This document shows, piece after piece, positions 7,707 through 60,692 of a DNA stretch of 64,000 bases (position 1 is the first letter of the stretch; the number at the start of each line of letters is the position of its first letter). Made by a program: the position numbers and the translations under genes. The notes beneath the pieces are model-generated. The model ran no database searches. It was not told the DNA's origin and saw only the letters and a list, made by a program, of their open reading frames with translations. The DNA is taken from assembly GCF_016522505.1 (NCBI RefSeq), contig NZ_JAEHOH010000001.1:248001-312000 (forward strand), read 5' to 3'. The stretch is from Leucobacter chromiisoli (GTDB lineage Bacteria; Actinomycetota; Actinomycetes; Actinomycetales; Microbacteriaceae).

Positions 7707-8903
7707 ATGCACACCCCGCACCACACGCCCCGGATCGTGATCGTCGGCGCCGGCATCGTCGGCCTCGGCCACGCCGTCGCCGCGCTCGACGCCGGCTTCC
7801 GCGTCATCGTGATCGAGCAGGACTCCGCCACCGTCGCTGCGAGCGTCCGCAACTTCGGCCACGTCGGCGCCTCCGTGCAGACGGGCGAGCTCGGGGAGCT
7901 CGCCCGTGAGGCCCTGCCCGTGTGGAAGGGCCTCGTCGAGCGGGCCGGGGTCGAGGCGCGCGTCTCCGGCACGCTCGTCGTCGCCCGCAGCGCGGCGGAG
8001 GAGGCCGTGCTGCAGGAGCTCGCCGCCGACCCGACGCGCTTCCCCGAGGGCGCGCGCCTGCTGACGGGCGCCCAGGCGGCGCCGATGCTCGGGATCGCCG
8101 GATCGGGCTCCGCGAACGGCCCCCGCGCGGACGCCGGCTCGACCTCGGAGCTCCTGGCCGCTGCTCTGCTCCCGGGCGATCTCACCGCCGACCCGCGCTC
8201 GGCGGTCGCTCGGATCGCCGCGTGGGTCGACGCGCACGAGCGGGGCGAGGTGCGCTTCCGCACCGCCGTGCACGGCGTCGAGGCGCGACTGGACGCCGGG
8301 GGTGCGGGCTCCGTCGCCGTCGACACGAACCGGGGCAGGATCGAGGCCGACCACGTGGTGGTCGCGGCCGGGCACCTCGTCGGTCGGCTCTTCCCCGAGC
8401 TCGCGGAGGCCGGCGACGTGCGCGAGTGCGCCCTGCAGATGGCCCGCGTACGCGCCCCCGAGGGGCTTCCGCTCGGGCCGGCCGTGCTCAGCGGCACCTC
8501 GATGCTGCGCTACGGCGCCTTCGCGGGTCCCGCCGCCGATGCCCTGCGCGCGCATCTCGCCGAGACCCGGCCCGATCTGCTCGAGATCGACGCGAACGTC
8601 ATGTTCACGCACCAAGCCGACGGCACGCTGCTCGTCGGCGACTCGCACTTCTCGTTCGGTTCGGCGCCGCCGTTCCTCGACGAGCGCTGCTCGCTCCTGC
8701 TGCTCGACGAGGCCGCCGCGATCCTCGGCGTGCCCGGCCTCGAGGTGCTGGAGCGCTGGCAGGGCGTCTATGCCACGAGCGCCAGGCAGGACATCCTGCG
8801 GGCCTCCCCCGAACCCGGCGTCGAGGTCGTCTCCGTGACGACCGGGGTCGGCATGACCACCGGGCTCGGGATCGGGGCGCGCACCGTCGCCGCGCTCTCC
8901 TGA
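7707..8903 (+). CDS. FAD-dependent oxidoreductase, TIGR03364 family (phosphonate-associated)
   Basis: A flavoprotein of the DAO/glycine-oxidase fold, 398 aa. The N-terminal dinucleotide motif is VIVGAGIVGLGHA (residues about 11-23). The C-terminus ends with the second flavin contact region VTTGVGMTTGLGIGARTVA. TIGR03364 members recur in phosphonate loci, and some relatives are reported to oxidise aminoethylphosphonates. Here it may make phosphonoacetaldehyde for the PhnX-like hydrolase. The ATG at 7707 follows TGGAG. It is the first gene of a run with phnD, phnC and phnE on the plus strand. The canonical transaminase PhnW is absent, so this oxidase could replace it. Substrate assignment is inference. 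Confidence 0.85.
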   Translation: MHTPHHTPRIVIVGAGIVGLGHAVAALDAGFRVIVIEQDSATVAASVRNFGHVGASVQTGELGELAREALPVWKGLVERAGVEARVSGTLVVARSAAEEAVLQELAADPTRFPEGARLLTGAQAAPMLGIAGSGSANGPRADAGSTSELLAAALLPGDLTADPRSAVARIAAWVDAHERGEVRFRTAVHGVEARLDAGGAGSVAVDTNRGRIEADHVVVAAGHLVGRLFPELAEAGDVRECALQMARVRAPEGLPLGPAVLSGTSMLRYGAFAGPAADALRAHLAETRPDLLEIDANVMFTHQADGTLLVGDSHFSFGSAPPFLDERCSLLLLDEAAAILGVPGLEVLERWQGVYATSARQDILRASPEPGVEVVSVTTGVGMTTGLGIGARTVAALS

Positions 8904-8956
8904 CCCCGTCCACGACACCCACCCGGCCCACCCGGCCCAGACTCCCAAGGAGCACC

Positions 8957-9883
8957 GTGAAGCAGCACACCCTGAAGAAGAACACCGCACTCGCATCCCT
9001 CACCCTCGGCGCCCTCGCGCTCGGCGCGACCGGCTGCGCGAGCACCGGCGCCGAGGCCTCGGGCGAGGCATCGGCCACCTGCCCCGACGGCAAGATCCGC
9101 TTCGGGATCCTGCCCTACGAGGATCCCGAGCGCCTCGAGCCCGCCTATCAGGTGCTCGCGGAGGCCCTGTCCGAGAAGCTCGACTGCCCCGTCGAGGTCA
9201 CCATCACCGAGGACTACTCGGCCGAGGTGCTCGCGATGGAGAACGACTCGCTCGAGATCGCCCAGTTCGGTCCGCTCGGCTTCGTGTTCGCGAGCGAGCG
9301 CGCGGGCGCCGTCCCGCTCGCCTCCTTCGGCGACGCCGAGGGGCAGCCGACCACGTACACCGGCGGCATCTGGGTGCCGAAGGATTCCGACATCGAGACG
9401 ATCGACGACCTGCCGGGCAGGACCCTCGCGCTGGGCAGCCCGGGATCCACCTCGGGCGACGCGCTCCCGATGTCGGCGCTCGCCGAGGCGGGCATCGAGG
9501 ACGAGGTGACGGCCGACTACGCCGGCGGCCACCCCGAGGCGCTGCTCGCACTCGTGAACGGCACCGTCGACGCCGCCCAGATCAACTCGCAGACCCTCGC
9601 CACGGCCGAGGCGGAGGGGACGTTCGACGCGAGCGAGTACCGCCAGATCTGGGAGTCGGAGGAGATCCCGAACGACCCGATCACGGTGCGCGACAACCTG
9701 CCCCAGGAGTTCAAGGACGCCGTCGAGGAGGCCCTCCTGAGCCTCGACGCCGAAGACGTCGAGCAGGTCTCCGCCTTCCTCGGCGTGGACCCCGCCGGCC
9801 CGCTGATCCCGGTCACGGTCGAGACCTACCAGCCGCTCTTCGACCTCGCCGAGACCATGGGCCTCACCGAGGAGGACGTGTGA
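8957..9883 (+). CDS. phnD: Phosphonate ABC transporter substrate-binding lipoprotein PhnD
   Basis: A periplasmic-type binding lipoprotein of 308 aa that captures phosphonates or related oxyanions outside the membrane. It has a signal peptide with lipobox LGATGC (Cys27), then the PhnD-type core beginning IRFGILPYEDPERLEPAY and the diagnostic IAQFGPLGFVFASE. The GTG start at 8957 has AAGGAG 4 bases upstream and gives a sensible signal peptide. The stop TGATGA overlaps the start of phnC by one base, so the genes are coupled. The exact ligand (aminoethylphosphonate, N-methyl-aminoethylphosphonate, phosphite) cannot be read from sequence. Confidence 0.93.
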   Translation: MKQHTLKKNTALASLTLGALALGATGCASTGAEASGEASATCPDGKIRFGILPYEDPERLEPAYQVLAEALSEKLDCPVEVTITEDYSAEVLAMENDSLEIAQFGPLGFVFASERAGAVPLASFGDAEGQPTTYTGGIWVPKDSDIETIDDLPGRTLALGSPGSTSGDALPMSALAEAGIEDEVTADYAGGHPEALLALVNGTVDAAQINSQTLATAEAEGTFDASEYRQIWESEEIPNDPITVRDNLPQEFKDAVEEALLSLDAEDVEQVSAFLGVDPAGPLIPVTVETYQPLFDLAETMGLTEEDV

Positions 9884-41620: not shown

Positions 41621-41708
41621 CGCCTCAGAGTCCGCCAAGGTCGGAGGACTAGGCTATGGCACCCGTGCGAAGTGAACGGTGAATGTCGTCACGGGAAACG
41701 GGAGTGGA

Positions 41709-43385
41709 ATGCAGCAGGAGACTGAGCCGGGGGTTCCGGTGGTGCAGGTGGAGACGCGCCGCGCCCCCGCCATGAGATTCCTGGGGGCGGTCTGGGCCGT
41801 GCTCGGCTGGCTCCTCGTCGCCCTCGGGGCCGTGCTCTTCGGCTCCGCCCTGTGGATCAGGCAGACCTTCGGCCCGATCTCCGTCGACCAGATGCTCATG
41901 CACCTTCCCGGCGCCGGGGGCGGCGACGCCGAGGCGACGCCCGAGGGGTATCTGTCGAGCTTCGTCGTGCAGGCGCTCGTGATCCCGCTCGCCGCGGTCG
42001 GAGCGCTGCTCTCCCTCGCCCTGCTCGTGCGACGCCGGCCGAAGCGGGACCGGAGGAGCTACGCCGTGCCCCCGCGGCCCTCCCGGGCCGCGCTGCTCTG
42101 GCGCCGGATCCGCGCGCGGCACTGGGCGCGGCCGGTGCTCGCCGTCGCCGCCTGCGTCGCGGGCGGTGCGGTCTTCGCCCAGGCCGTCCAGGCTCCCCAG
42201 TACGTGCAGTCGATCACGACGCCGATGACGCTGGAGGACTACTACGTCGCGCCGGAGGCCGGCGGAGCGGTGAGCACGGTCGGGGATCCCCGGTCGGGGG
42301 AGGAGCGCAAGAATCTCGTGCTCATCTACCTGGAGTCCATGGAAGACGCGTTCTCCGACGCAGAGCTCATGGGCGAGAACCTCCTCGAACCGGTCGAGGA
42401 GGCCACCGAGGGGTGGGGGACGATCCCGGCGCTGCGGCAGTACGAGGGCGGCGGCTGGACGATGTCGGGCATCGTCGGCTCCCAGTGCGGGGTGCCGCTG
42501 CGCGGGGCGGGGTACACCCCGCGGGAGCGGAACGACATCGGCGAGGGCGAGGACGACTACCTCCCCGGCGCGGTGTGCCTCGGCGACGTGCTCGACGGCG
42601 CGGGGTACACGAGCGTGTTCATGGGCGGAGCGCACGAGCAGTTCGCCTCGAAGGGCGTCTACCTGCGGAACCACGGCTACGACACGGTCAAGGACGCGAA
42701 TCACTGGATCGCGCAGGGGGAGACGGAGTACTCGGTCTGGGGCCTCTCCGACGCGCGCCTGATGGAGAACGCGAAGGCCGAGGTCGACGAGCTGCATGCG
42801 TCGGGCCGGCCGTTCAACCTGACCCTCCTGACCCTCGACTCCCACGAGCCGGCGCACCTCTTCGACCACTGCCCGCAGACCACCGAGGAGCCGTTGAGCT
42901 CGGCCATCAAGTGCTCCATGAGCGAGGTGGCCGGTTTCGTCGAGCACATGGAGTCGCAGGGCTACCTGGACGACACCGTGGTGGTGCTCGTCGGCGACCA
43001 CGAGAAGATGGTCGGGGAGGATCGCCCCTACTGGAGCGAGCTCGGCGACCTCCAGGGGCGCACGATCTTCAACCGGATCTGGAGCCCCGACGGAGTGGGC
43101 GATCTGCGCTCGGTCGACCAGCTCAGCCTCTATCCGACGCTGCTGGACCTCCTCGATCTCGGCCGCCCCGATCACCGAGCCGGGGTGGGAGTCTCGGCTC
43201 TCGTCGACGAAACCGCCTCGACGAGCATCCTGGACCTGTCCCCCGACGAGTACCGAGAGGTCGTGAACTCGCGTTCGTTCGAGCTGTATCAGCGGCTCTG
43301 GGGTCTGGAGGGCCCGGGAGGCGGCGGCACGGACCGCCCCGCCGAGGCGGGCGAGCGCGCGGGCTCGCAGCCGGTCGAAGAGTAG
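41709..43385 (+). CDS. LtaS/OpgB-like phosphoglycerol transferase (sulfatase superfamily)
   Basis: A membrane-bound 558-aa alkaline-phosphatase-fold enzyme. Three or four helices lie in the first 170 residues, then the extracellular catalytic domain. NLVLIYLESMEDAF holds the first metal ligand. GGWTMSGIVGSQCGVPL carries the predicted Thr nucleophile and matches OpgB/MdoB better than LtaS. VVLVGDHEKM supplies the GDH metal ligands. The ATG at 41709 has GGGAG 4 bases upstream. It likely transfers phosphoglycerol (or a similar group) to an envelope glycan. It ends at a hairpin-rich convergent junction with the rhamnose genes. Confidence 0.85.
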   Translation: MQQETEPGVPVVQVETRRAPAMRFLGAVWAVLGWLLVALGAVLFGSALWIRQTFGPISVDQMLMHLPGAGGGDAEATPEGYLSSFVVQALVIPLAAVGALLSLALLVRRRPKRDRRSYAVPPRPSRAALLWRRIRARHWARPVLAVAACVAGGAVFAQAVQAPQYVQSITTPMTLEDYYVAPEAGGAVSTVGDPRSGEERKNLVLIYLESMEDAFSDAELMGENLLEPVEEATEGWGTIPALRQYEGGGWTMSGIVGSQCGVPLRGAGYTPRERNDIGEGEDDYLPGAVCLGDVLDGAGYTSVFMGGAHEQFASKGVYLRNHGYDTVKDANHWIAQGETEYSVWGLSDARLMENAKAEVDELHASGRPFNLTLLTLDSHEPAHLFDHCPQTTEEPLSSAIKCSMSEVAGFVEHMESQGYLDDTVVVLVGDHEKMVGEDRPYWSELGDLQGRTIFNRIWSPDGVGDLRSVDQLSLYPTLLDLLDLGRPDHRAGVGVSALVDETASTSILDLSPDEYREVVNSRSFELYQRLWGLEGPGGGGTDRPAEAGERAGSQPVEE

Positions 43386-43464: not shown

Positions 43465-44859
43465 TCAGGCCTCGGCCAGGTACGCCGTCAGCGCTTCGCG
43501 GGCGTCGCGCGGAGTGAAGCCCGCGGCCTCCAGCTTGCCGAGTTCGAGCGTGCTGTTGAGCGGTCGCGGAGCGACCCGCTTGCCCGCGAAGTACTCCTCG
43601 GTCGAGACTCCGCTGACGCGGGCGGGGTCGTGCCCGGTGCCCTCGTACACGAGCTTCGCGATCTCGCACCACGACATCGACGGCCCCTCGTTGGTGAGGT
43701 TGTAGACGCCGTGCTCCGGCCGGGTCTCGAGCAGATGCCGGATCCCGGCCGCGATGTCGTCGGTGAAGCTCAGGCGGCCGACCTGGTCGTCCACCACGCT
43801 CGGGTCGATGCCGCGTTCGGCCAGCGAGGCCATGGTGCGCACGAAGTTGCCGCCCTCGCCGATCACCCAGCTGGTGCGCACGATGTAGTGGCGCGGCACG
43901 GTCGAGACGATGGCGTCGCCGGCGGCCTTCGTCTGGCCGTAGACGCCGAGGGGTGAGCACGCGTCGGTCTCGGCGTAGCTCTGCTCCGTGCCGTCGAAGA
44001 CGTAGTCGCTCGAGACGTGCACGAGCGTGAGCCCGTGCTCGACGGCGGCCCTGGCGAGCGCCGCGACGCCGGCGACGTTCGCGGCCCACGCGTCGCGCCG
44101 GCCCGTCTCCGTCTCGGCCTCGTCGACCTTCGTGTACGCGGCGGCGTTGACCACGGTGTCGTAGTCGGCCCAGCGGATGCCGTCGAAGGGGGCGGCGGAG
44201 GCCAGGTCGACGCGATCCCGAGCGGCGAAATCTGCGTCGGGCAGCGCTGAGCGCAGCGCGGTGCCGAGCTGCCCGTTCGCGCCGATCACGAGCGTGCGCT
44301 TCGGCTTCATCGGGACCACGTCGGCGAGGCGCGGGTGCGCGAGGTCCTTCTCCGAGCGTTCCGCCCGATCCAGGGGGATCGGCCAGTCGATCGCGGCCGT
44401 CTCGTCCTCGAGGTTCAGGAAGGTGTACTCGCCCTGGGCCTCGGCGCTCCAGTGATCGTTGACGAGGTAGACGTAGGCCGTGTCGTCGGCCAGGGTCTGG
44501 TACGAGTTGCCCACGCCGCGCGGCACGAAGATCGCCGTCGAGGGGTCGAGCTCCGCGGTGAACACGGCGCCGAAGGAGTCTCCCTCGCGCAGGTCGACCC
44601 AGGCGCCGAAGATCTTGCCGGTCGCCACCGAGACGAACTTGTCCCAGGGCTCCGCGTGGATTCCCCGCGTCGCGCCCGTCTTGTCGTTGAAGGAGATGTT
44701 GTTCTGCACCGGTCCGAAGTCGGGCAGGCCCAGCGCGACCATCTTCTCGCGCTGCCAGTTCTCCTTGAACCAGCCGCGGTTGTCGCCGTGCACGGGCAGG
44801 TCGAGCAGCACGAGGCCCGGGATCGTGGTCTCGCGCAGGGCGAGCTGCTTCGCCGCCAC
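43465..44859 (-). CDS. rmlCD: Fused dTDP-4-keto-rhamnose 3,5-epimerase / dTDP-4-keto-rhamnose reductase (RmlC-RmlD)
   Basis: A bifunctional 464-aa enzyme doing the last two steps of dTDP-L-rhamnose synthesis. Residues about 1-190 are the RmlC cupin, with the catalytic His in TRGIHAEPWDK. From KRTLVIGANGQLG (about 192) it is an RmlD short-chain reductase, with SSDYVFDG and YGQTKAAGD holding the YxxxK catalytic pair. This fusion is common in actinobacteria. The GTG at 44859 begins 2 bases after the rmlB stop, so both are coupled. It works with rmlB here and rmlA at 46958. Confidence 0.95.
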   Translation of the reverse strand: MAAKQLALRETTIPGLVLLDLPVHGDNRGWFKENWQREKMVALGLPDFGPVQNNISFNDKTGATRGIHAEPWDKFVSVATGKIFGAWVDLREGDSFGAVFTAELDPSTAIFVPRGVGNSYQTLADDTAYVYLVNDHWSAEAQGEYTFLNLEDETAAIDWPIPLDRAERSEKDLAHPRLADVVPMKPKRTLVIGANGQLGTALRSALPDADFAARDRVDLASAAPFDGIRWADYDTVVNAAAYTKVDEAETETGRRDAWAANVAGVAALARAAVEHGLTLVHVSSDYVFDGTEQSYAETDACSPLGVYGQTKAAGDAIVSTVPRHYIVRTSWVIGEGGNFVRTMASLAERGIDPSVVDDQVGRLSFTDDIAAGIRHLLETRPEHGVYNLTNEGPSMSWCEIAKLVYEGTGHDPARVSGVSTEEYFAGKRVAPRPLNSTLELGKLEAAGFTPRDAREALTAYLAEA

Positions 44860-44861
44860 GG

Positions 44862-45893
<1,032 letters not shown>

Positions 45894-46957: not shown

Positions 46958-47821
46958 ATGAAGGGCATCATTCTCGCCGGTGGATCCGGCACCCGGCTGT
47001 GGCCCATCACGAAGGGCATCTCGAAGCAGCTCATGCCGATCTACGACAAGCCGATGGTCTACTACCCCCTGTCGACGCTGATGATGGCGGGGATCAACGA
47101 GGTCCTGATCATCACGACCCCCGAGTACCACGAGCAGTTCCGCGCCCTCTTCGGCGACGGCTCGCACCTGGGCATGCGGATCGAGTACGCCGTGCAGCCC
47201 TCGCCCGACGGGCTCGCCCAGGCGTTCATCATCGGCGAGGAGTTCATCGGCGACGACAGCGTGGCGCTGGTGCTCGGCGACAACATCTTCCACGGCGTGG
47301 GGCTCGGCACGAGCCTGCGCCGGCACACCGACATCGACGGCGCCGTGGTCTTCGCCTACCACGTCGCGAACCCGACCGCCTACGGCGTGGTCGAGTTCGA
47401 CGAGAGTATGCGCGCCATCTCCATCGAGGAGAAGCCGACGGAGCCGAAGAGCAACTACGCCGTGCCGGGGCTCTACTTCTACGACAACGACGTGGTGCGC
47501 ATCTCGAAGACCATCGAGCCGAGCGCGCGCGGCGAACTCGAGATCTCCAGCGTCAACGAGGAGTACCTCAGGACGGGCAGGCTCAGCGTGCAGACGCTCG
47601 AGCGCGGCACCGCCTGGCTCGACACCGGCACCTTCGAGTCGATGATGCAGGCCGCCGAGTACGTGCGGGTGATCGAGGACCGCCAGGGCTTCAAGGTCGG
47701 CTGCATCGAGGAGGTCGCCTGGCGCAACGGCTGGATCGACGACGCCGAGCTCGAGGAGCTCGCCAGTCCGCTGCTGAAGAGCGGCTACGGCAGGTACCTG
47801 GCCTCGCTGCTGGGCGGCTGA
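46958..47821 (+). CDS. rmlA: Glucose-1-phosphate thymidylyltransferase RmlA
   Basis: First enzyme of dTDP-rhamnose synthesis, making dTDP-glucose; 287 aa. The N-terminal signature [20 protein letters not shown] and [18 protein letters not shown] are diagnostic. [10 protein letters not shown] and [14 protein letters not shown] complete the active site. The ATG follows GAAAGGAAG. It is transcribed away from the other rml genes, from a promoter region with TATAGAC at about 46920. Confidence 0.96.
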
Positions 47822-47855: not shown

Positions 47856-49064
47856 TCAGCGCCGCAGGAGCCTGCTCAGCGGCCGGAGGAGCGCGTGCCC
47901 CAGGCGGTACGAGCGGGAACGGCGCAGCGCTGCATTCGCGTCGGTCAGCTCTGCGACGGTCTTCTGGAGTTCCGGTGCGGAATGCTGCAGCTCCTCGTTG
48001 GCCTTCCACGCGCCGTGAATGGCTCGCGTATTGTCGCGCTGCATCTTCGCATACGCCGTCCAACGCTTCGCGTGGGCTGCGCTGAGCGGATGCTTGGGCG
48101 TCGACTCGTCGGCGAGCCGCTCGAGCAGAGCGTCGACGTGATTGCGCAGGCTGAACCGATCCCGGTGCTCCTGGATGCGCTCCGCGGAGAACGCGCGCGC
48201 CGCGTCGTACCCCTCGATGATCTCCCGAGCGATGGCGGCGCCGCTGATCCGGCGCTTCGTCGGTCGCCCGCTGAAGTTGAACAGGCAGGCGGTCTCGAAG
48301 TCGTCCGATCCGAGCCAGCCGTCTCCGCCGAGGTGATCGTATATGTACACCGGAATGCCGAGGCACAGCGCGTACTGGGCCGTCTTGCCGATCGTGACGA
48401 CGGCGTCGACGTCGCGGAAGGTCTCGGGAGTGACCCTGGCCGGCGCATCGCCTCCGACCCGGCGTACGGCGACGCCCGAGGCTGCGAGCGCCTCGATCGC
48501 CTCCGTCATCTCCGCAGGGGGGTGATTCGAGACCAGGAGGACGGTGGCGAGATCCGAGGATGCCGGAGCGGGGGGAGACTCCTCGGTGAAGGGGCGAGGA
48601 GCGGGATTGGGGAGCAGCTCCGTGCGGTTCTCCGGCAGCCCGTACTGCAGGAGTGCGTCGCGCGTCTCCGCGGAGTTGAACGAGCTCAGGGAGGCGACCG
48701 CTGCCTCGATGTCCGCGAGTACCGGCGATTCGATGCCGGGGAGCGTCGACATGTGATGCCACACGAGGGGAAGGGCGGCCGGTCTCGAGCGGAGGGAGTC
48801 GATGATCGCTTCGGGGAGCACGCCGTGCTGCACCCACAGCAGATCGTAGTGGTCGATCGTCCGCGGGGCCTCTGCCTCGTGGAGTCGGACGAGGCCGCCG
48901 GGAGCCAGTTTCTCGAACTCGCTCCTGAACGGCTCATCCGCGTAGTTGGTGAAGACGTCGACGTGCCAACCGCGGTCCGCGAACTCCTCGGCGAGCTCGA
49001 GAGCGACCATCTCGGAACCGCCGTAGTTCGCCAGATGATTGTTCGTCAGCAGGAGGCGGGGCAC
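47856..49064 (-). CDS. Glycosyltransferase (GT4-like) with C-terminal coiled coil
   Basis: A 402-aa protein with a GT-B N-domain start LLLTNNHLANYGGSEMVALELA, typical of GT4 enzymes. The donor domain is weakly conserved. The final 80 residues form a Gln/Glu/Ala-rich heptad region (KANEELQHSAPELQKTVAELTDANAALRR, split by eye), a pattern seen at the end of several actinobacterial polysaccharide enzymes and possibly a scaffold for complex formation. GTG start at 49064. It lies downstream of the ABC exporter genes in the same direction. Confidence 0.78.
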   Translation of the reverse strand: MPRLLLTNNHLANYGGSEMVALELAEEFADRGWHVDVFTNYADEPFRSEFEKLAPGGLVRLHEAEAPRTIDHYDLLWVQHGVLPEAIIDSLRSRPAALPLVWHHMSTLPGIESPVLADIEAAVASLSSFNSAETRDALLQYGLPENRTELLPNPAPRPFTEESPPAPASSDLATVLLVSNHPPAEMTEAIEALAASGVAVRRVGGDAPARVTPETFRDVDAVVTIGKTAQYALCLGIPVYIYDHLGGDGWLGSDDFETACLFNFSGRPTKRRISGAAIAREIIEGYDAARAFSAERIQEHRDRFSLRNHVDALLERLADESTPKHPLSAAHAKRWTAYAKMQRDNTRAIHGAWKANEELQHSAPELQKTVAELTDANAALRRSRSYRLGHALLRPLSRLLRR

Positions 49065-49127: not shown

Positions 49128-50189
49128 TCACTCGACCGGAGTGAGGCGCGGGATCCCGCTCTGCGGGATCTCGATCGTTCCCCGCAGGAAGTGCTGCCGC
49201 ACGGTGCCGTCTCCGGTGGTGACGGCGTCGTCCTTGGGCCATCCGAGCTCGTCGATGCCGCCCACCGCGTTGAAGAAGGTGCGAATGGGCTCCTTGATCG
49301 CGTGCACGCCGGTCCGCTCCGACCAGCAGAGCGCTCCTCTCTGGAAGGCCTGGACGACGCCGTGGCCGTGCACCGCGATGGGGTTCCGATGGGAGGAGGG
49401 CCAGCCGAGCTCGGACTTGCGCTCGCGGTCGAACGCCGCCTCGAACTCGGGTGCGATGGGGAACACGCTGCTGGTGTACGCGCCGGCGACGTCCTCGACG
49501 GGGCCCACCTGCCTGAGCGAGCCCTTCTCGATCCACGCCGCCTGATCGCACATCTGCATGACCGTGCCGAGGGAGTGGCTCACGAGGATGACGGTCTTGC
49601 CCTGCTCGTGCAGCTCGTCGAACTTGGCGCGGGACTTCTCCTGGAAGGCGGCGTCGCCCACCGCGAGGATCTCGTCGACGACGAGCACGTCGGGCTGCAC
49701 GTGGATGGCGACGGAGAAGCCGAGCCGCACGTACATGCCCGACGAGTAGCTCTTCACCGGCTGGTCGATGAACTTGCCGATCTCGGAGAAGTCGACGATC
49801 TCGTCGAACTTCCGGGCGACCTCCTTGCGGCTCATGCCGAGGATGGAGCCGTTCAGGAAGATGTTCTCCCGGCCGGAGAGCTCGGGATGGAAGCCGGATC
49901 CGACCTCCAGCAGCGAGGCGACGCGGCCGGTGCTCGTGATCTCGCCCTCGTCGGGCCAGAGGATCTTGGCGAGGCACTTGAGGAGGGTCGACTTGCCGGA
50001 GCCGTTGCTGCCGATGAGGGCGAAGTTGGAGCCCTGGGGAACATCGAACGTGATGTCCCGCAGCGCCCAGAAGTCCTCGTGCTCCGACACCTTCCGGCGC
50101 ATGATCGCGGACTTCAGGCTCTGGTTGCGCTCGTGGTACAGCCGGAACTTCTTGCCGAGGCCCCTCACGCTCACTGCAGTCTCGGTCAT
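49128..50189 (-). CDS. wzt: Wzt-type polysaccharide ABC exporter ATPase with C-terminal LGFP repeats
   Basis: ATPase of a polysaccharide exporter, 353 aa. Walker A is GSNGSGKST (about 60-68), the signature YSSGMYVRLGFSVA, Walker B VLVVDEILAVGD and the switch His VSHS, all as in Wzt/TagH. After about residue 250 comes not the usual beta-sandwich sugar-binding domain but LGFP-like repeats: ELGWPSSHRNPIAVHGHG, VQAFQRGALCW and ELGWPKDDA. These align closely with repeats in the secreted protein at 58206. The domain may read the exported glycan in the cytoplasm. It overlaps the permease gene by ATGA. Confidence 0.92.
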   Translation of the reverse strand: MTETAVSVRGLGKKFRLYHERNQSLKSAIMRRKVSEHEDFWALRDITFDVPQGSNFALIGSNGSGKSTLLKCLAKILWPDEGEITSTGRVASLLEVGSGFHPELSGRENIFLNGSILGMSRKEVARKFDEIVDFSEIGKFIDQPVKSYSSGMYVRLGFSVAIHVQPDVLVVDEILAVGDAAFQEKSRAKFDELHEQGKTVILVSHSLGTVMQMCDQAAWIEKGSLRQVGPVEDVAGAYTSSVFPIAPEFEAAFDRERKSELGWPSSHRNPIAVHGHGVVQAFQRGALCWSERTGVHAIKEPIRTFFNAVGGIDELGWPKDDAVTTGDGTVRQHFLRGTIEIPQSGIPRLTPVE

Positions 50190-51022
50190 AGGATCTCCGC
50201 AATCTTCTTCTCGGAGCGGTTGAAGACGACGACGCCCACCAGCACCGCCGCGGCCGTCCAGCCCACGCAGGTGACCAGGTGGACCGTGTCGGGCCAGCGG
50301 TTGTCGTAGAGCAGCTGGCGGAACGCCGTGACGAAGTGGTACATCGGGTTCAGGGTGTAGATGTCGAACACCGTGACGTCGGTTCCCAGCAGGCCGCCCA
50401 CCCGGTCGGACATGTCACGGATCAGCGAGACGGGGTAGATGATCGGCGTGAGATACATCCAGAGCTGCAGCAGGATCGTGAGCAGGTACTGGGTGTCCCG
50501 GAAGTGGATGTTGACGATCGAGAGGATCCATCCCAGGCCGCTCGCGAACATGGCGAGCAGCAGCATCATGAGGAGCGTTCCCGGGATCCACATCAGCACG
50601 TTCGCGCCGACGAGCAGCAGGGCGATCGTCAGGACGAGCATCTCGAGCAGCCAGTTCATGCCGATCGTGCCGACCGCCGCGAGCGGGAGCACGGACCTCG
50701 GGAAGTAGACCTTCGTGATGAGACCCGCGTTGGAGACGAGCGAGTTCGCGGTGGCGTTCAGGCTGCCCATGAAGAAGCCCCACGGCAGCAGGCCGCACAT
50801 GAGCCAGACGGGGAAGATGTTGAGCCCGCTCGGGTCGCCGGGCTCCGGCTGGATGCGGAACACCATCGAGAAGATGAAGGTGTAGATCAGCATCGACGCC
50901 AGAGGGTTCAGCAGCGACCACAGCCTGCCGAGGACCGTCCGCTTGTACTGGCCGCGGGTCTCGCGCAGGACGAGGTTCCCCAGGAGCTCGCGCGATGACC
51001 AGAGCTCCCGGAAAAACTGCAT
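50186..51022 (-). CDS. wzm: Polysaccharide ABC exporter permease (Wzm/TagG-like)
   Basis: An ABC-2 type membrane subunit of 278 aa with about six helices. LRETRGQYKRTVLGRLWSLLNPL near the N-terminus is the amphipathic entry characteristic of Wzm/TagG/RfbA proteins. LNPMYHFVTAFRQLLY lies before the last helix. It pairs with the overlapping ATPase gene to move a lipid-linked glycan to the outer leaflet. The ATG is preceded by TAGGA. Confidence 0.93.
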   Translation of the reverse strand: MQFFRELWSSRELLGNLVLRETRGQYKRTVLGRLWSLLNPLASMLIYTFIFSMVFRIQPEPGDPSGLNIFPVWLMCGLLPWGFFMGSLNATANSLVSNAGLITKVYFPRSVLPLAAVGTIGMNWLLEMLVLTIALLLVGANVLMWIPGTLLMMLLLAMFASGLGWILSIVNIHFRDTQYLLTILLQLWMYLTPIIYPVSLIRDMSDRVGGLLGTDVTVFDIYTLNPMYHFVTAFRQLLYDNRWPDTVHLVTCVGWTAAAVLVGVVVFNRSEKKIAEIL

Positions 51023-52679: not shown

Positions 52680-55163
52680 ATGGAACCGCAGGCGCCAGTC
52701 GTATCCGTCATCCTCGTGAACTTCCGCGGGGCCGACGACACGATCGGGGCGATCCGGCATCTCGGCCAGCTCGACTGGCCCGCCGAGCGACTCGAGATCG
52801 TCGTCGTCGAGAACGCGTCCGGGGACGACAGCGCCGAGCGCATCCGCGCCGCCGCGCCGCACGTCAAGCTGATCGAGTCGCGGAAGAACCTCGGCTTCGC
52901 CGGGGGCTGCAATCTCGGCGCCAAGAAGAGCAGCGGCGATATCGTGGCCTTCCTGAACAACGACGCGAAGCCCGACCGCGGCTGGGTGCGGGAGGCGGTC
53001 GCCCGCTTCGAGTCCTCGCCCAGGATCGGCGCGGTGGCCAGCCGCGTCCTCGACTGGGACGGCAACAACGTCGACTTCATCGGCTCGGGCCTCACCTGGT
53101 TCGGCATGGGGTACAAGCCCCACGCGGGGCTCCCGATCCCGGACAAGCCCGACCTGCCGCACGACGTGCTCTTCGGCACCGGATCCGCGATGTTCGTGCG
53201 CCGTGACGTCTACGAGGAGCTGGGCGGCTTCGACGAGCGCTACTTCATGTTCTTCGAGGACGTGGACCTCGGCTGGCGGCTCAACCTGAAGGGGTACCGC
53301 TTCGCCTACGAGCCGGCCTCGCTCGCCTTCCACAAGCACCACGCGAGCATGGACAAGCTCGGGGCCTACAAGGAGACGTACCTGATCGAGCGCAACGCGC
53401 TCTACACGCTCTACAAGAACCTCGGCGACGAGGCTCTCGACGAGACGCTCGCGGCTACCCTGCTGCTCACCGTCCGGCGGAGCATCGCCCGCAGCGGGCT
53501 CGACTCGACCTCCTACGACATCCGCAAGTCGTCGGCGGACCTGGAGCTGACGGAGGCCGTCCCCAAGGACACCGTCGCCGCCCTCTACGCCATCGACCAG
53601 TTCGTGCAGGAGCTGCCCTCGCTCGTGAAGTCGAGGCGGGAGATCCAGGAGTCCCGCGCCACCCCCGAGCACGTGATCCACCGGCTGTTCCTCGACACGA
53701 ACGCGCCCTCCTTCACCGGTGAGCACTTCATGAAGGGGTACCAGCGGATCACCGAGGCCTTCGACGTGCTCGACGGCCCCGAGCGCACCAACGTGCTCAT
53801 CATCACGGGCGACCCGCTCGGCGTGAAGATGGCCGGTCCCGCGATCCGCGCCTGGCACATGGCCGAGGCGCTCTCGGGCGGCAACGACGTGCGGCTCGTG
53901 AGCCTGGAGGGCCACGAGGATCTGGACGCCGACTTCGTGCTCGACACCGTGAAGCCCGGCGACAACAGGGCGATGGCGGCCCACGAGGAGTGGGCCGACG
54001 TCATCATCTTCCAGGGGCTCGCGATGGCGCTGTTCCCGGCGATCCGCAAGACGCAGAAGATCCTGGTCGTCGACATCTACGACCCGATGCACCTGGAGCA
54101 GCTCGAGCAGGGGCGCCCGCAGGGCGAGGAGGCCTGGACTCGGGCCACGGCCGATGCGACGAACGTGCTCAACGAGCAGCTCGCGCGCGGCGACTACTTC
54201 CTCTGCGCCTCGGAGCGGCAGCGCCACTTCTACCTCGGCCAGCTGGCCGCGCTCGGGCGCGTGAACCCCGCCAACTACGCCGACGATCCCGACCTCACTG
54301 GGCTCATCAGCGTCGTGCCGTTCGGTCTCGGGCACGAGCCCCCGCAGCACGAGAAGCGCGTGCTCAAGGGCGTGCACCCGGGCATCGGCGAGAACGACAA
54401 ACTGCTCCTGTGGAGCGGCGGGCTCTACAACTGGTTCGATCCGCTCACGCTCATCCGGGCGGTCGCAAAGGTCGCCGAGACCCACCCCGAGGTCAAGCTC
54501 TACTTCCTCGGCACCAAGCACCCCCATCCCGGCGTGCCCGAGATGAAGATCGTGACCGACTCGCGGGCGCTCGCCGCCGAGCTCGGGGTCGCCGACACCA
54601 ACGTCTTCTTCAACGGGTCGTGGGTCGACTACGCGGACCGCGGCAACTACCTCGTCGAGGCCGACCTCGGCGTCAGCACGCACCACTCGCACATCGAGAC
54701 GACGTTCAGCTTCCGCACCCGCATCCTCGACTACCTGTGGGCCGAGCTGCCGATGGTCGTCACCGAGGGCGATCACTTCGCCGAGCTGGTCGAGGAGCGC
54801 GGCCTCGGTCGCGCCGTCCCCGCCGAGGACGTCGACGCCCTGGCGGCCGCGCTCGAGGATCTGCTCTTCACCGAGGGCGAGTTGGAGCAGGCCCGGCGGG
54901 CCATCGCGGAGGTGCGCCCCGAGTACGAGTGGGGCACGGTGTTCGCGCCCCTCGTCGAGTTCGTCGAGGAGGCCCGCTACGCGGCGGATCGCGTGAAGCG
55001 CGGCGAGGTCAGCATGGCGCGGACCGACGGGAGGCCGGCGAAGCGCCGCCGCCCCGCGGGGCAGAACGGGATCGTCGAGGATGCGCGCCGAGCCGGCCTG
55101 CTGCTCGTGCGGCAGGGCCCGGGCGCCGTGATCCGCAAGGTCAAGCAGCGGCTCGGGCGGTAG
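52680..55163 (+). CDS. Bifunctional GT2-GT4 glycosyltransferase fusion
   Basis: An 827-aa protein with two glycosyltransferases. Residues about 1-270 are GT2: SVILVNFRGADDTIGAI, NLGFAGGCNLGAKKSSG, FLNNDAKPDRGW and ELGGFDERYFMFFEDVDLGW. A helical linker (about 270-370) leads to a GT4 domain starting ITGDPLGVKMAGPAIRAW, paralogous to the whole of the neighbouring protein at 51116. The basic C-terminal tail KRRRPAGQ and RQGPGAVIRKVKQRLGR may sit on the membrane. The ATG at 52680 is used; no strong Shine-Dalgarno is visible. Two linked sugars may be added in sequence by one protein. Confidence 0.88.
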   Translation: MEPQAPVVSVILVNFRGADDTIGAIRHLGQLDWPAERLEIVVVENASGDDSAERIRAAAPHVKLIESRKNLGFAGGCNLGAKKSSGDIVAFLNNDAKPDRGWVREAVARFESSPRIGAVASRVLDWDGNNVDFIGSGLTWFGMGYKPHAGLPIPDKPDLPHDVLFGTGSAMFVRRDVYEELGGFDERYFMFFEDVDLGWRLNLKGYRFAYEPASLAFHKHHASMDKLGAYKETYLIERNALYTLYKNLGDEALDETLAATLLLTVRRSIARSGLDSTSYDIRKSSADLELTEAVPKDTVAALYAIDQFVQELPSLVKSRREIQESRATPEHVIHRLFLDTNAPSFTGEHFMKGYQRITEAFDVLDGPERTNVLIITGDPLGVKMAGPAIRAWHMAEALSGGNDVRLVSLEGHEDLDADFVLDTVKPGDNRAMAAHEEWADVIIFQGLAMALFPAIRKTQKILVVDIYDPMHLEQLEQGRPQGEEAWTRATADATNVLNEQLARGDYFLCASERQRHFYLGQLAALGRVNPANYADDPDLTGLISVVPFGLGHEPPQHEKRVLKGVHPGIGENDKLLLWSGGLYNWFDPLTLIRAVAKVAETHPEVKLYFLGTKHPHPGVPEMKIVTDSRALAAELGVADTNVFFNGSWVDYADRGNYLVEADLGVSTHHSHIETTFSFRTRILDYLWAELPMVVTEGDHFAELVEERGLGRAVPAEDVDALAAALEDLLFTEGELEQARRAIAEVRPEYEWGTVFAPLVEFVEEARYAADRVKRGEVSMARTDGRPAKRRRPAGQNGIVEDARRAGLLLVRQGPGAVIRKVKQRLGR

Positions 55164-58205: not shown

Positions 58206-60692
58206 GTGGGAGTCCGAAGCGTGTCGCGCCGAAGCGGGTATCCGCTACTGGCGCTCTTCACGGCGTTGCTCGTCGCATTCTCCCTGATGCAGGCCCCTCC
58301 GGCCCACGCCGCGAACGTGACCGACGGATTCGACCCGGGGAACATCATCTCCGACGAGAACTTCTACGGCGGCAACGCGATGAGCGCCTCGCAGGTGCAG
58401 AGCTTCCTGAACCAGCGGGTGCCCGACTGCACCATCGGCGATCCGGGCCGCGCGCCCGGCTCCGCCTGGGGCAGCACCAGGATCGCCAACAACTGCCTGC
58501 GGGACTTCCGCGTGACGACGCAGAGCCGGCCCGCGAACGCCTACTGCGGCGCCTACGGCGGCGTGGCGAACGAGACGGCCGCCAGCATCATCGCCAGGGT
58601 GGGCCAGGCCTGCGGCATCAGCCAGCGGGTGCTGCTCATCATGCTCGAGAAGGAGCAGAGCCTCGTCACCGACACCTGGCCGACGGTGCGGCAGTTCGAC
58701 GTGGCGATGGGCTACGCCTGCCCCGACTCGGGCCCTGGCGGCTCGGCGAACTGCGACTCGGCGTACTACGGCTTCTTCAACCAGGTGTACCGGGCGGCCT
58801 GGCAGCTGAAGGTGTACCGCGCGCACCCCAACAGCTACAACTACAAGCCCTTCCAGAGCAACCGCATCCAGTGGCACCCGAACATCGGCTGCGGCACCTC
58901 CAACGTCTACATCGAGAACTGGGCGACGGCGGCCCTCTACATCTACACGCCCTACCGCCCGAACCAGGCGGCGCTGAACGCGGGCTGGGGCACGGGCGAC
59001 GCCTGCTCGAGCTACGGCAACCGCAACTTCTACAACTTCTACAAGACCTGGTTCGGGAACCCGAAGGTTGATGCCAACTACCCGAAGATCGATGAGAAGC
59101 GCGCCCAGAACTCCTGGCTGGGTGCGCCGACCTCGGAATACAACTACTACGACCACAATGGTGGTGGTGTCGTACGGGCATTCGAGAACGGTGCTGTAGC
59201 GTGGCGGTCCGGCACAAGCACGGCATTCATCCTGACCGGGGATTTCAGAACCTATTTCAGTAGTCAAGGCGGGATCACAGGACGCCTGGGTTGGCCGACT
59301 TCGGATCAGCAAGAGTGGGACCGCGGCAGGACCCAGGGGTTCCAAGGGGGTGCGGTCTCATCGAGCGCGGAACACGGTTTTGCGACCGTCACTGGCTCTA
59401 TCCGCGGTCATTACGCTGAATGGGCGCTGGCGTACAACGGCCCTCTTGGCTGGCCTACCGGAGAGCAGGTCTGCACAACGAGCACCCAATGCAGTCAGAA
59501 CTTTGAGAACGGACGTATTCTGCTCAGCGGCTCGGCCGTCTCCATCAGGATCCCCCAGATCGACTCGGTGGCCACCTCAGCAGCCTCGAAGCTCGGCGCC
59601 GTTACCCAGTCTGCTCGGGCCCAAGCTGCTCACGGTGGAGGATTCGTGCAGGCGCACAAGAACGGAGCCATCGCCTGGAGTAAGGCCACGGGCGCCCACA
59701 TCGTGGCCGGCGATATTCGAAAAGCGTATGGATCCGCGGGCGGTGTATCGGGACAGTACGGCTGGCCGACATCCGATCAGGTATGTGTTTCTGACGGATC
59801 ATGCTCTCAGAACTTCGTCGGCGGGACGATCCAGGTGGATGGCAACGGCAACGTCGTATCCATGACCAAGGATGTGCGGGATGCATATGAGGCGCTGAAG
59901 AAAGCGGGGATCGACCTGGGGAAGAGCCTCGGGGATACTCAGACTGTCTCTCAGGGCAAGGGGGGACGCGTTCACGCCTTCGAGAATGGTGCGATCGCGG
60001 CGTCGGATCGTACCGGCGCGTACGCCGTCATGGCTCCGATCCGGGCTCCGTTCGCTTCTGCCGGCGGCCTGGGAGGAGCGCTGGGTTGGCCGACGGGTAA
60101 CTCCAGAGTCGAGAGCGCCAACGGTGGAGGAACCCTTCAGGGGTTCGAGGGCGGTGCCATAACCAGTACGGCATCCGGGTCATACGTGCTTTCGGGGGTG
60201 ATGCGTACGGCTTTCGGCGCCCACGGCGGGCTCACCGGCACACTCGGATGGCCGCAATCGAACGCAGTCCAGCACACTGTGAAGGGTGGCGGTTCCGTTC
60301 AGGCATTCCAGGGCGGAGCCCTGGTTCAGCGCAATGGAACAACAGTTCCGGTTCTGCTCGACGGCGAAATCCGTAAGACCTTCGGTGCTGCGGGTGGCCT
60401 GGCCGGGACACCGGGATGGCCCACAGGAGAGGCGAGGACGGAGAGTGCGAACGGCGGCGGGGTAGTCCAAGGCTTCCAGAACGCGGCGATCGCTTCTTCC
60501 GTACATGGGACGTTCATGGTGACCGGCGAGATTCGCAGTTTCTACAGTGCTCAAGGGGGGCTGTCGGGGGCCCTGGGATGGCCTACGTCCGCCGCTACGA
60601 AGGTGGGGAACGAAGAACGGCAGTCGTTCCAGGGTGGAACGATCGTGCATGATCTCCGCACCGGAGTGAGCCGGATTGAAGCCATAGGATAA
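58206..60692 (+). CDS. Secreted LGFP-repeat protein with lysozyme-like N-terminal domain
   Basis: An 828-aa exported protein. The signal peptide ends near PAHA-AN (residue about 35). Residues about 36-290 form a Cys-containing domain with FYGGNAMSASQVQSFLN and VLLIMLEKEQSLVTDTWP; the Glu there suggests a glycan-hydrolase (lysozyme-like) site, which is inference. From about 295 to the end there are roughly ten LGFP-type repeats (LGWPTS, FENGAVAW, GDIRKAYGSAGGVSG). LGFP repeats are thought to bind the cell wall. Base composition falls sharply from about 59,060, near where the repeats begin. GTG start at 58206; the Shine-Dalgarno is weak. Confidence 0.88.
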   Translation: MGVRSVSRRSGYPLLALFTALLVAFSLMQAPPAHAANVTDGFDPGNIISDENFYGGNAMSASQVQSFLNQRVPDCTIGDPGRAPGSAWGSTRIANNCLRDFRVTTQSRPANAYCGAYGGVANETAASIIARVGQACGISQRVLLIMLEKEQSLVTDTWPTVRQFDVAMGYACPDSGPGGSANCDSAYYGFFNQVYRAAWQLKVYRAHPNSYNYKPFQSNRIQWHPNIGCGTSNVYIENWATAALYIYTPYRPNQAALNAGWGTGDACSSYGNRNFYNFYKTWFGNPKVDANYPKIDEKRAQNSWLGAPTSEYNYYDHNGGGVVRAFENGAVAWRSGTSTAFILTGDFRTYFSSQGGITGRLGWPTSDQQEWDRGRTQGFQGGAVSSSAEHGFATVTGSIRGHYAEWALAYNGPLGWPTGEQVCTTSTQCSQNFENGRILLSGSAVSIRIPQIDSVATSAASKLGAVTQSARAQAAHGGGFVQAHKNGAIAWSKATGAHIVAGDIRKAYGSAGGVSGQYGWPTSDQVCVSDGSCSQNFVGGTIQVDGNGNVVSMTKDVRDAYEALKKAGIDLGKSLGDTQTVSQGKGGRVHAFENGAIAASDRTGAYAVMAPIRAPFASAGGLGGALGWPTGNSRVESANGGGTLQGFEGGAITSTASGSYVLSGVMRTAFGAHGGLTGTLGWPQSNAVQHTVKGGGSVQAFQGGALVQRNGTTVPVLLDGEIRKTFGAAGGLAGTPGWPTGEARTESANGGGVVQGFQNAAIASSVHGTFMVTGEIRSFYSAQGGLSGALGWPTSAATKVGNEERQSFQGGTIVHDLRTGVSRIEAIG

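What the first reader, a model, noticed from the sequence alone, without database searches (positions are those of the whole stretch)
49128..50189. LGFP repeats on a cytoplasmic Wzt ATPase
LGFP repeats are known from secreted wall-binding proteins. Here they replace the carbohydrate-binding domain of a polysaccharide exporter and align almost residue by residue with repeats of the secreted protein at 58206 (for example HGHGVVQAF against HGGGFVQAH, and a shared GTI end). This implies LGFP modules recognise the exported glycan itself, with one reader inside for export and one outside for retention or remodelling. I know of no described system of this kind.
Basis: partly seen in the sequence, partly recalled or inferred. 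Interest (0 to 1): 0.85.

Follow-up and report, generated by a model that had tools for sequence, protein, structure and literature searches.

The report
Wall-binding LGFP module on polysaccharide exporter
In this actinobacterium the ATPase that powers export of a surface polysaccharide carries, on its inside-the-cell end, a small module otherwise known from proteins stuck to the outside of the cell wall, probably used to recognise the sugar chain before it is exported.

Summary
The ATPase at 49128-50189(-) ends in two LGFP units (Pfam LGFP 2e-12), has no membrane segment, and in this genome LGFP is otherwise found only in the secreted protein at 58206-60692. It is no one-off: 35 of the 54 held genomes of the genus (36 proteins) have an LGFP-tailed Wzt. 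With the tail profile it was not found in 195 other-genus genomes of the family or 295 others from the phylum. Tails sit on two separate exporter lineages; four sister ATPases of the window's lineage carry the known glycan-binding domain Wzt_C at that place. In one genome two exporter copies are identical up to the tail and then differ. Best reading: an alternative cytoplasmic glycan-recognition module, a new variant of the Wzt carbohydrate-binding-domain theme. The 'one reader inside, one outside' pair is only partly supported: the secreted gene is usually a neighbour, but in 11 of 35 genomes no other LGFP gene was found, and tails do not match their own partners outside the window's lineage. 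Glycan binding is untested.

The parts
49128..50189 (-). Wzt-type ABC ATPase with C-terminal LGFP pair (P0001, 353 aa)
49470..50189 (-). Nucleotide-binding domain, residues 1-240
   Evidence: ABC_tran; Foldseek matches to A. aeolicus Wzt, TagH, M. abscessus Wzt
49287..49433 (-). LGFP unit 1 (residues 253-301: helix, LGWP, strands)
   Evidence: Pfam LGFP 2.1e-12; model secondary structure
49131..49286 (-). LGFP unit 2 (residues 302-353)
   Evidence: second LGWP; model secondary structure; aligned to PS1/MytA repeats
50186..51022 (-). Permease partner Wzm (P0003); its end overlaps the Wzt start by 4 bases
   Evidence: ABC2_membrane 1.2e-14; NCBIfam galactan_ABC_perm 9.9e-21, below its cut-off
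47856..49064 (-). Glycosyltransferase downstream of Wzt
   Evidence: Glyco_transf_4 3.2e-9
58206..60692 (+). Secreted multi-LGFP protein (P0002, 828 aa): signal-like N-terminus, conserved N-terminal domain without Pfam family, LGFP array
52680..55163 (+). Two-domain glycosyltransferase (GT2 + GT1-type)
46958..47821 (+). Nucleotidyltransferase, RmlA-like
   Evidence: NTP_transferase 2.6e-73; the Rml name is inference
44862..45863 (-). NDP-sugar dehydratase, RmlB-like
   Evidence: GDP_Man_Dehyd 7.1e-72; the Rml name is inference
43465..44916 (-). RmlC-RmlD-like fusion (dTDP-rhamnose synthesis)
   Evidence: dTDP_sugar_isom 3.7e-36 and RmlD_sub_bind 1e-68

Best explanation
The LGFP pair is a substrate-recognition module of a Wzm/Wzt-type polysaccharide exporter that takes the place of the usual Wzt carbohydrate-binding domain. 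Shown here: it is fused to the end of the nucleotide-binding domain, has no membrane segment, looks to be under purifying selection, occurs on two unrelated exporter lineages of one genus, sits where sister ATPases carry Wzt_C, and in one genome differs between two otherwise identical exporter copies. Inferred: it binds the finished or growing lipid-linked glycan in the cytoplasm and couples that binding to ATP hydrolysis, as Wzt_C does in O-antigen exporters. Also inferred: the secreted LGFP protein from the same region binds the same class of polymer once it is in the wall, but this pairing is optional. The window's module most likely came from a secreted LGFP gene, which lies 64 bp downstream of the Wzt in the nearest relative.
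For: Position and interchangeability: of 29 family ATPase loci of the window's lineage used in the tree, 25 end within 22 residues after the ATPase domain and 4 (L036-L039) have tails of 161-181 aa; all 4 tails are Wzt_C over the Pfam cut-off. Recurrence: 36 proteins in 35 of 54 genus genomes, on two ATPase lineages whose joining is rejected (p-AU 5e-99); their permeases differ too (G789 558 bits to the window's Wzm, 71-93 for the 34 of lineage II). Natural swap: in G786 a 1610-bp block holding Wzm and the ATPase domain is identical in two copies and stops at the ATPase/tail junction; tails 43 of 124 aligned residues identical, and different glycan genes follow: a weak LicD match and a GT2 after copy 1; the secreted LGFP gene and a Glyphos_transf/GT protein after copy 2. 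Selection: tail dN/dS 0.035-0.336 in the 10 of 12 pairs where it could be computed; tail dN 1.6 to 9.8 times that of the ATPase. LGFP ligand: PMC11299179 (passages read) reports that MytA LGFP units interact with peptidoglycan-arabinogalactan components. Wzt CBD mechanism: PMC9445017 (abstract, introduction and passages read).
Against: No binding data. In lineage II tail similarity does not follow similarity of the genes within 5 kb downstream once ATPase similarity is allowed for (partial correlation -0.09; 1780 of 2000 permutations as high; ATPase similarity does follow it, 0 of 2000 as high), though the test is crude (97 of 561 pairs have any related downstream gene). Eleven of 35 genomes show no other LGFP gene. 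A single origin of all tails, with later transfer between exporters, is not excluded (p-AU 0.26). LGFP units could bind something other than the exported polymer. Known cap-type CBDs come with a capping modification; I identified no capping enzyme. The 12 dN/dS pairs are not all independent and several are near saturation at synonymous sites.
Confidence: 0.62

Rival explanations
1. The LGFP tail is a protein docking or assembly device: it holds glycosyltransferases or other cytoplasmic proteins at the exporter, or stabilises the Wzt dimer, without reading the glycan.
For: No ligand known; tails do not track downstream glycan genes beyond the ATPase; TagH-type tails with other functions exist (recalled).
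Against: LGFP units elsewhere are linked to wall binding; the module sits exactly where Wzt_C sits; identical exporter cores keep different tails beside different glycan genes in G786.
Confidence: 0.2
2. One reading: an LGFP reader inside for export and an LGFP reader outside for retention, both specific for the same glycan and co-evolving.
For: In the window genome the tail's best match among 40 secreted LGFP proteins is its own partner (rank 1); secreted LGFP genes are usually neighbours of the exporter.
Against: 11 of 35 LGFP-Wzt genomes have no other detected LGFP; no association in presence (Fisher p 0.77) and no tail-partner matching outside lineage I. Rank 1 in the window may reflect recent common origin rather than a shared ligand.
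Confidence: 0.25
3. Neutral read-through fusion: the end of a neighbouring secreted LGFP gene was joined to a short Wzt and is carried along without function.
For: Frames of secreted LGFP genes lie 19-87 bp downstream of an LGFP-Wzt in G770, G785, G786 and G789 and 53-78 bp downstream of short Wzts in G121 and G051, so fusion is easy; most related family ATPases are short.
Against: Present in 35 of 54 genomes, with dN/dS of 0.035-0.336 in the 10 pairs where it could be computed.
Confidence: 0.06

Closest known systems
Wzt with C-terminal carbohydrate-binding domain (Wzt_C, PF14524; E. coli O9a, A. aeolicus WzmWzt)
   Same: Same ATPase family, same junction after the last ATPase helix, cytoplasmic C-terminal domain, partner Wzm permease, polysaccharide locus.
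   Different: The module is an LGFP pair with no Wzt_C match; no capping enzyme identified; found here in a genus of an actinobacterial-type genome rather than in a Gram-negative.
LGFP repeats of C. glutamicum PS1/MytA (PF08310; 6SWZ, 6SX4)
   Same: Same repeat family (phmmer 9.2e-8); same helix plus 3-4 strand unit.
   Different: There five units on a secreted protein; here two units on a cytoplasmic ATPase.
Short Wzt/RfbE and TagH/TarH exporters (galactan and teichoic acid export ATPases)
   Same: 25 of the 29 family ATPase loci nearest the window protein end within 22 residues after the ATPase domain.
   Different: They lack a tail; TagH tails lie behind a membrane segment (recalled), absent here.

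Membership tests
LGFP repeat (PF08310) | Score over Pfam's curated cut-off | tested here: met
   Window protein 47.7 bits against 22; G789 42.1. Of 8 lineage II proteins scanned, 5 pass; L158 (19.8 bits), L241 (19.9) and L243 (no match) do not and rest on the tail profile.
LGFP repeat (PF08310) | About 54-residue unit, helix plus 3-4 antiparallel strands | tested here: met
   Model secondary structure against the description in PMC11299179
LGFP repeat (PF08310) | Binds cell-wall glycan | not testable with these tools
   Needs binding assay
CBD-dependent Wzm-Wzt exporter | Wzt-type ATPase with Wzm-type permease in one operon | tested here: met
   4-base overlap of the two ORFs
CBD-dependent Wzm-Wzt exporter | Cytoplasmic domain fused to the C-terminus of the ATPase domain | tested here: met
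   the cytoplasmic place is inferred from the lack of a membrane segment
CBD-dependent Wzm-Wzt exporter | That domain is Wzt_C (jelly roll, PF14524) | tested here: not met
   No Wzt_C match in P0001 to E 0.1; LGFP instead
CBD-dependent Wzm-Wzt exporter | Chain-terminating cap enzyme in the locus | tested here: inconclusive
   None evident among Pfam hits of the 20 ORFs scanned; several ORFs had no family and not every ORF was scanned
CBD-dependent Wzm-Wzt exporter | Domain binds the exported glycan and is needed for export | not testable with these tools
   Needs experiment
TagH/TarH with extracytoplasmic tail | Membrane segment between ATPase and tail (recalled) | tested here: not met
   Highest 19-residue hydropathy 0.78 from residue 225 to the end

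The most novel reading that the evidence does not exclude
LGFP pairs are a second, structurally unrelated class of export-licensing glycan readers, traded between exporters of one genus and interchangeable with Wzt_C; the same module type reads the polymer inside for export and outside on the wall, so tail sequence could be used to predict or reassign which wall polymer an exporter accepts.
Probability: 0.35. Interest if true: 0.82.

Novelty: new variant of a known kind. Interest (0 to 1): 0.62.

Why it matters
How exporters of Gram-positive wall polymers choose their substrate is, as far as I know (recalled), poorly understood; a detachable cytoplasmic recognition module, present in two versions on identical exporter cores in one genome, would make that choice directly testable. 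It would also move LGFP repeats from 'cell-wall anchors' towards general readers of wall polymers.

Tried and rejected
First reading 'unique to this genome': a single-sequence query (ATPase end plus tail) found no other fused Wzt in 398 family, 396 order and 345 class genomes. This was far too strict: it missed all nine other genus members in the sample, each of which has an LGFP-Wzt. The LGFP profile over the genus and the tail profile corrected it. The order and class counts are therefore very weak negatives. In some searches only the best 18 or 12 first-look candidates of a genome were scored, with limits of E 1e-8 and 1e-11.

Small LGFP ORFs of other genera (L057, L068, L065, L067, L043, L069, L047) looked like possible fused Wzts; none matched the ATPase query, and by eye 6 of the 9 printed sequences begin like secreted proteins.

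My expectation, from memory, that LGFP repeats form a closed five-bladed ring was dropped after reading that the MytA units form a stalk, so two units can stand alone.

Tail-partner matching, presence association and tail versus downstream genes were run as tests of the pairing and of glycan reading and mostly failed; they are told as evidence against. Plasmids: the window ATPase matches at least 5000 records, 67 of them over 80% of the query; the best two are Rhodococcus short Wzts (query 1-241), and the three long-coverage hits I examined (of the 67) carry Wzt_C, one below the cut-off, and no LGFP. The window tail alone finds nothing in plasmids or phages, nor a lineage II tail in plasmids. 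Genome-contig scan: one weak archaeal hit, not pursued. Papers: none held both 'LGFP' and 'Wzt'; 5 hold 'LGFP' and 'ABC transporter', of which I read the LGFP passages of three and saw two only in the listing; none of the three describes this architecture. The structure comparison of the ATPase model showed ABC ATPases in its 50 rows, so it says nothing on the tail.

Full report
What is there. ORF 49128-50189(-) encodes a 353-aa Wzt-type ABC ATPase (ABC_tran 3.8e-20) with a C-terminal LGFP match (2.1e-12, over the cut-off). Its start overlaps the end of a Wzm-type permease (50186-51022) by four bases. In the own genome the LGFP profile finds nine matches at E up to 0.001, one in this ATPase and eight in the secreted protein at 58206-60692. 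The tail aligns to that protein over 88 columns with 34 identities, score 175 against at most 62 in 1000 shuffles. AlphaFold gives the tail two helix-plus-strand units at mean pLDDT 95-98, and phmmer links it to the C-terminal LGFP units of C. glutamicum PS1/MytA (9.2e-8). No membrane segment separates it from the ATPase.

Surroundings. The region holds RmlA-, RmlB- and RmlC/D-like genes, several glycosyltransferases, and genes with GFO/IDH, hexapeptide-transferase and DegT families (20 chosen ORFs scanned). The polymer therefore probably contains rhamnose and perhaps a diamino-type acidic sugar; this is inference from families.

How widespread. A profile of the last 35 ATPase residues plus tail (A1, 14 rows) was run over the 54 held genomes of the genus: 35 genomes have a match covering both parts, and reading the regions confirmed ATPase and tail in one frame in all 35, 36 proteins in all. 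In 199 family genomes the 4 of this genus had it and the 195 others did not; they had no match, or matched the ATPase end or LGFP alone. In 296 genomes drawn from the phylum only the window's genome had it. Only the best 18 or 12 candidates of a genome were scored in those two calls, so the negatives are not absolute.

Two exporter lineages. In the ATPase tree (quick method, 78 rows) the window protein and G789 (89% identical) lie among short Wzts of other genera and four with longer tails; the other 34 tailed proteins lie in a distant group. Holding all tailed ATPases together is rejected. All four longer tails are Wzt_C over the cut-off. In the tail tree (quick method, few columns), lineage II tails form a supported group, and the window and G789 tails form a pair that lies among secreted LGFP units; but one origin of all tails is not rejected (p-AU 0.26). 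So either LGFP was captured twice, or a tail moved between exporters. By score the window tail's nearest sequences after G789 are secreted LGFP proteins, its own first (175), ahead of any lineage II tail (at most 94). In G789 the frame of the secreted LGFP gene lies 64 bp downstream of the Wzt on the same strand, which offers a simple route for the fusion.

A natural swap. G786 has two Wzm-Wzt pairs. A 1610-bp block (L144:2822-4431 and 8138-9747) is identical and ends at the ATPase/tail junction; tails share 43 of 124 aligned residues. Copy 1 is followed by a protein with a weak LicD match (1.6e-5) and a GT2, copy 2 by the secreted LGFP gene and a Glyphos_transf/GT protein. A repeat assembly error is not excluded, though the genome is given as one contig.

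Selection. In 12 close pairs the tail's dN is 1.6 to 9.8 times that of the ATPase; dN/dS of the tail, computable in 10, is 0.035-0.336. Some pairs share a member, the domain boundary was approximate (last 125 residues, except in the window pair), and synonymous sites are near saturation in several. This suggests a functional tail that changes faster than the motor, as expected of a recognition part.

The inside/outside pair. Of the 35 genomes, 24 have a separate LGFP protein. In 22 the frames lie 19 bp to 13.1 kb from an LGFP-Wzt. In G794 the two genes lie about 16 kb apart on one contig, worked out by me from the stretch coordinates. In G784 the LGFP gene is on another short contig. In the other 11 genomes neither PF08310 to E 0.1 nor the tail profile to 1e-9 finds a second LGFP protein; PF08310 missed even the Wzt tail in 3 of these 11 (G208, G773, G779), so diverged partners could escape it. 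Without LGFP-Wzt, 12 of 19 genus genomes have an LGFP protein, so presence is not associated (p 0.77); several of the 7 with neither are incomplete genomes. Own-partner matching: 25 tails, 40 partners; the own partner ranks first for 2 (window, G770), median rank 11; 64 of 20000 permutations are as high for all, but 3834 without lineage I. Tail similarity does not follow downstream gene similarity beyond ATPase similarity (34 proteins). These results limit the two-reader model and give no independent support for glycan reading.

The secreted partner. Its N-terminal domain is conserved in the genus and in the four family members of other genera that I aligned, with invariant cysteines and an invariant KEQ in 38 aligned rows, but has no Pfam family and no PDB sequence relative at E up to 1. 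A PHROGs endolysin family matches P0002, the best stretch being residues 276-446, mostly LGFP.

Mechanism. From PMC9445017 (abstract, introduction and passages): Wzt_C binds the capped chain end in the cytoplasm, is needed for export of capped O antigen and works in trans. By position, exchangeability and rapid change, the LGFP pair most likely plays that part here; LGFP units elsewhere are reported to interact with wall glycan (PMC11299179, passages). Every step beyond the anatomy is inference. In the searches I found no paper describing LGFP on an exporter; for most listed papers I saw only the listing, and the library lacks most subscription journals.

Noticed in passing
L144:2822-4431 and 8138-9747: Two identical Wzm-ATPase cores with different LGFP tails in one genome (G786).
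   Followed up: yes
window 58206-59075 (P0002 residues 1-290): Secreted N-terminal domain conserved in the family, invariant cysteines and a KEQ motif, no Pfam family; might be a hydrolase (guess).
   Followed up: partly
L152:5905-9627 and L144:12184-16008: Large Glyphos_transf plus GT proteins beside lineage II LGFP-Wzts suggest a teichoic-acid-like polymer there, unlike the rhamnose genes in the window.
   Followed up: partly
L260 and L261 (G051, G121; other genus): Short Wzt followed after 78 or 53 bp by the frame of a secreted LGFP gene on the same strand: the arrangement from which a fusion could arise.
   Followed up: partly
window 41679-43385: Sulfatase-family protein (PF00884 7e-18) inside the polysaccharide region.
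   Followed up: no
L094 (own genome, C16:10634-11338): A second, short Wzt-like ATPase (41% identical) without tail.
   Followed up: no
L152:12421-14412 and L144:79-2064: DUF6541 proteins near lineage II exporters.
   Followed up: no
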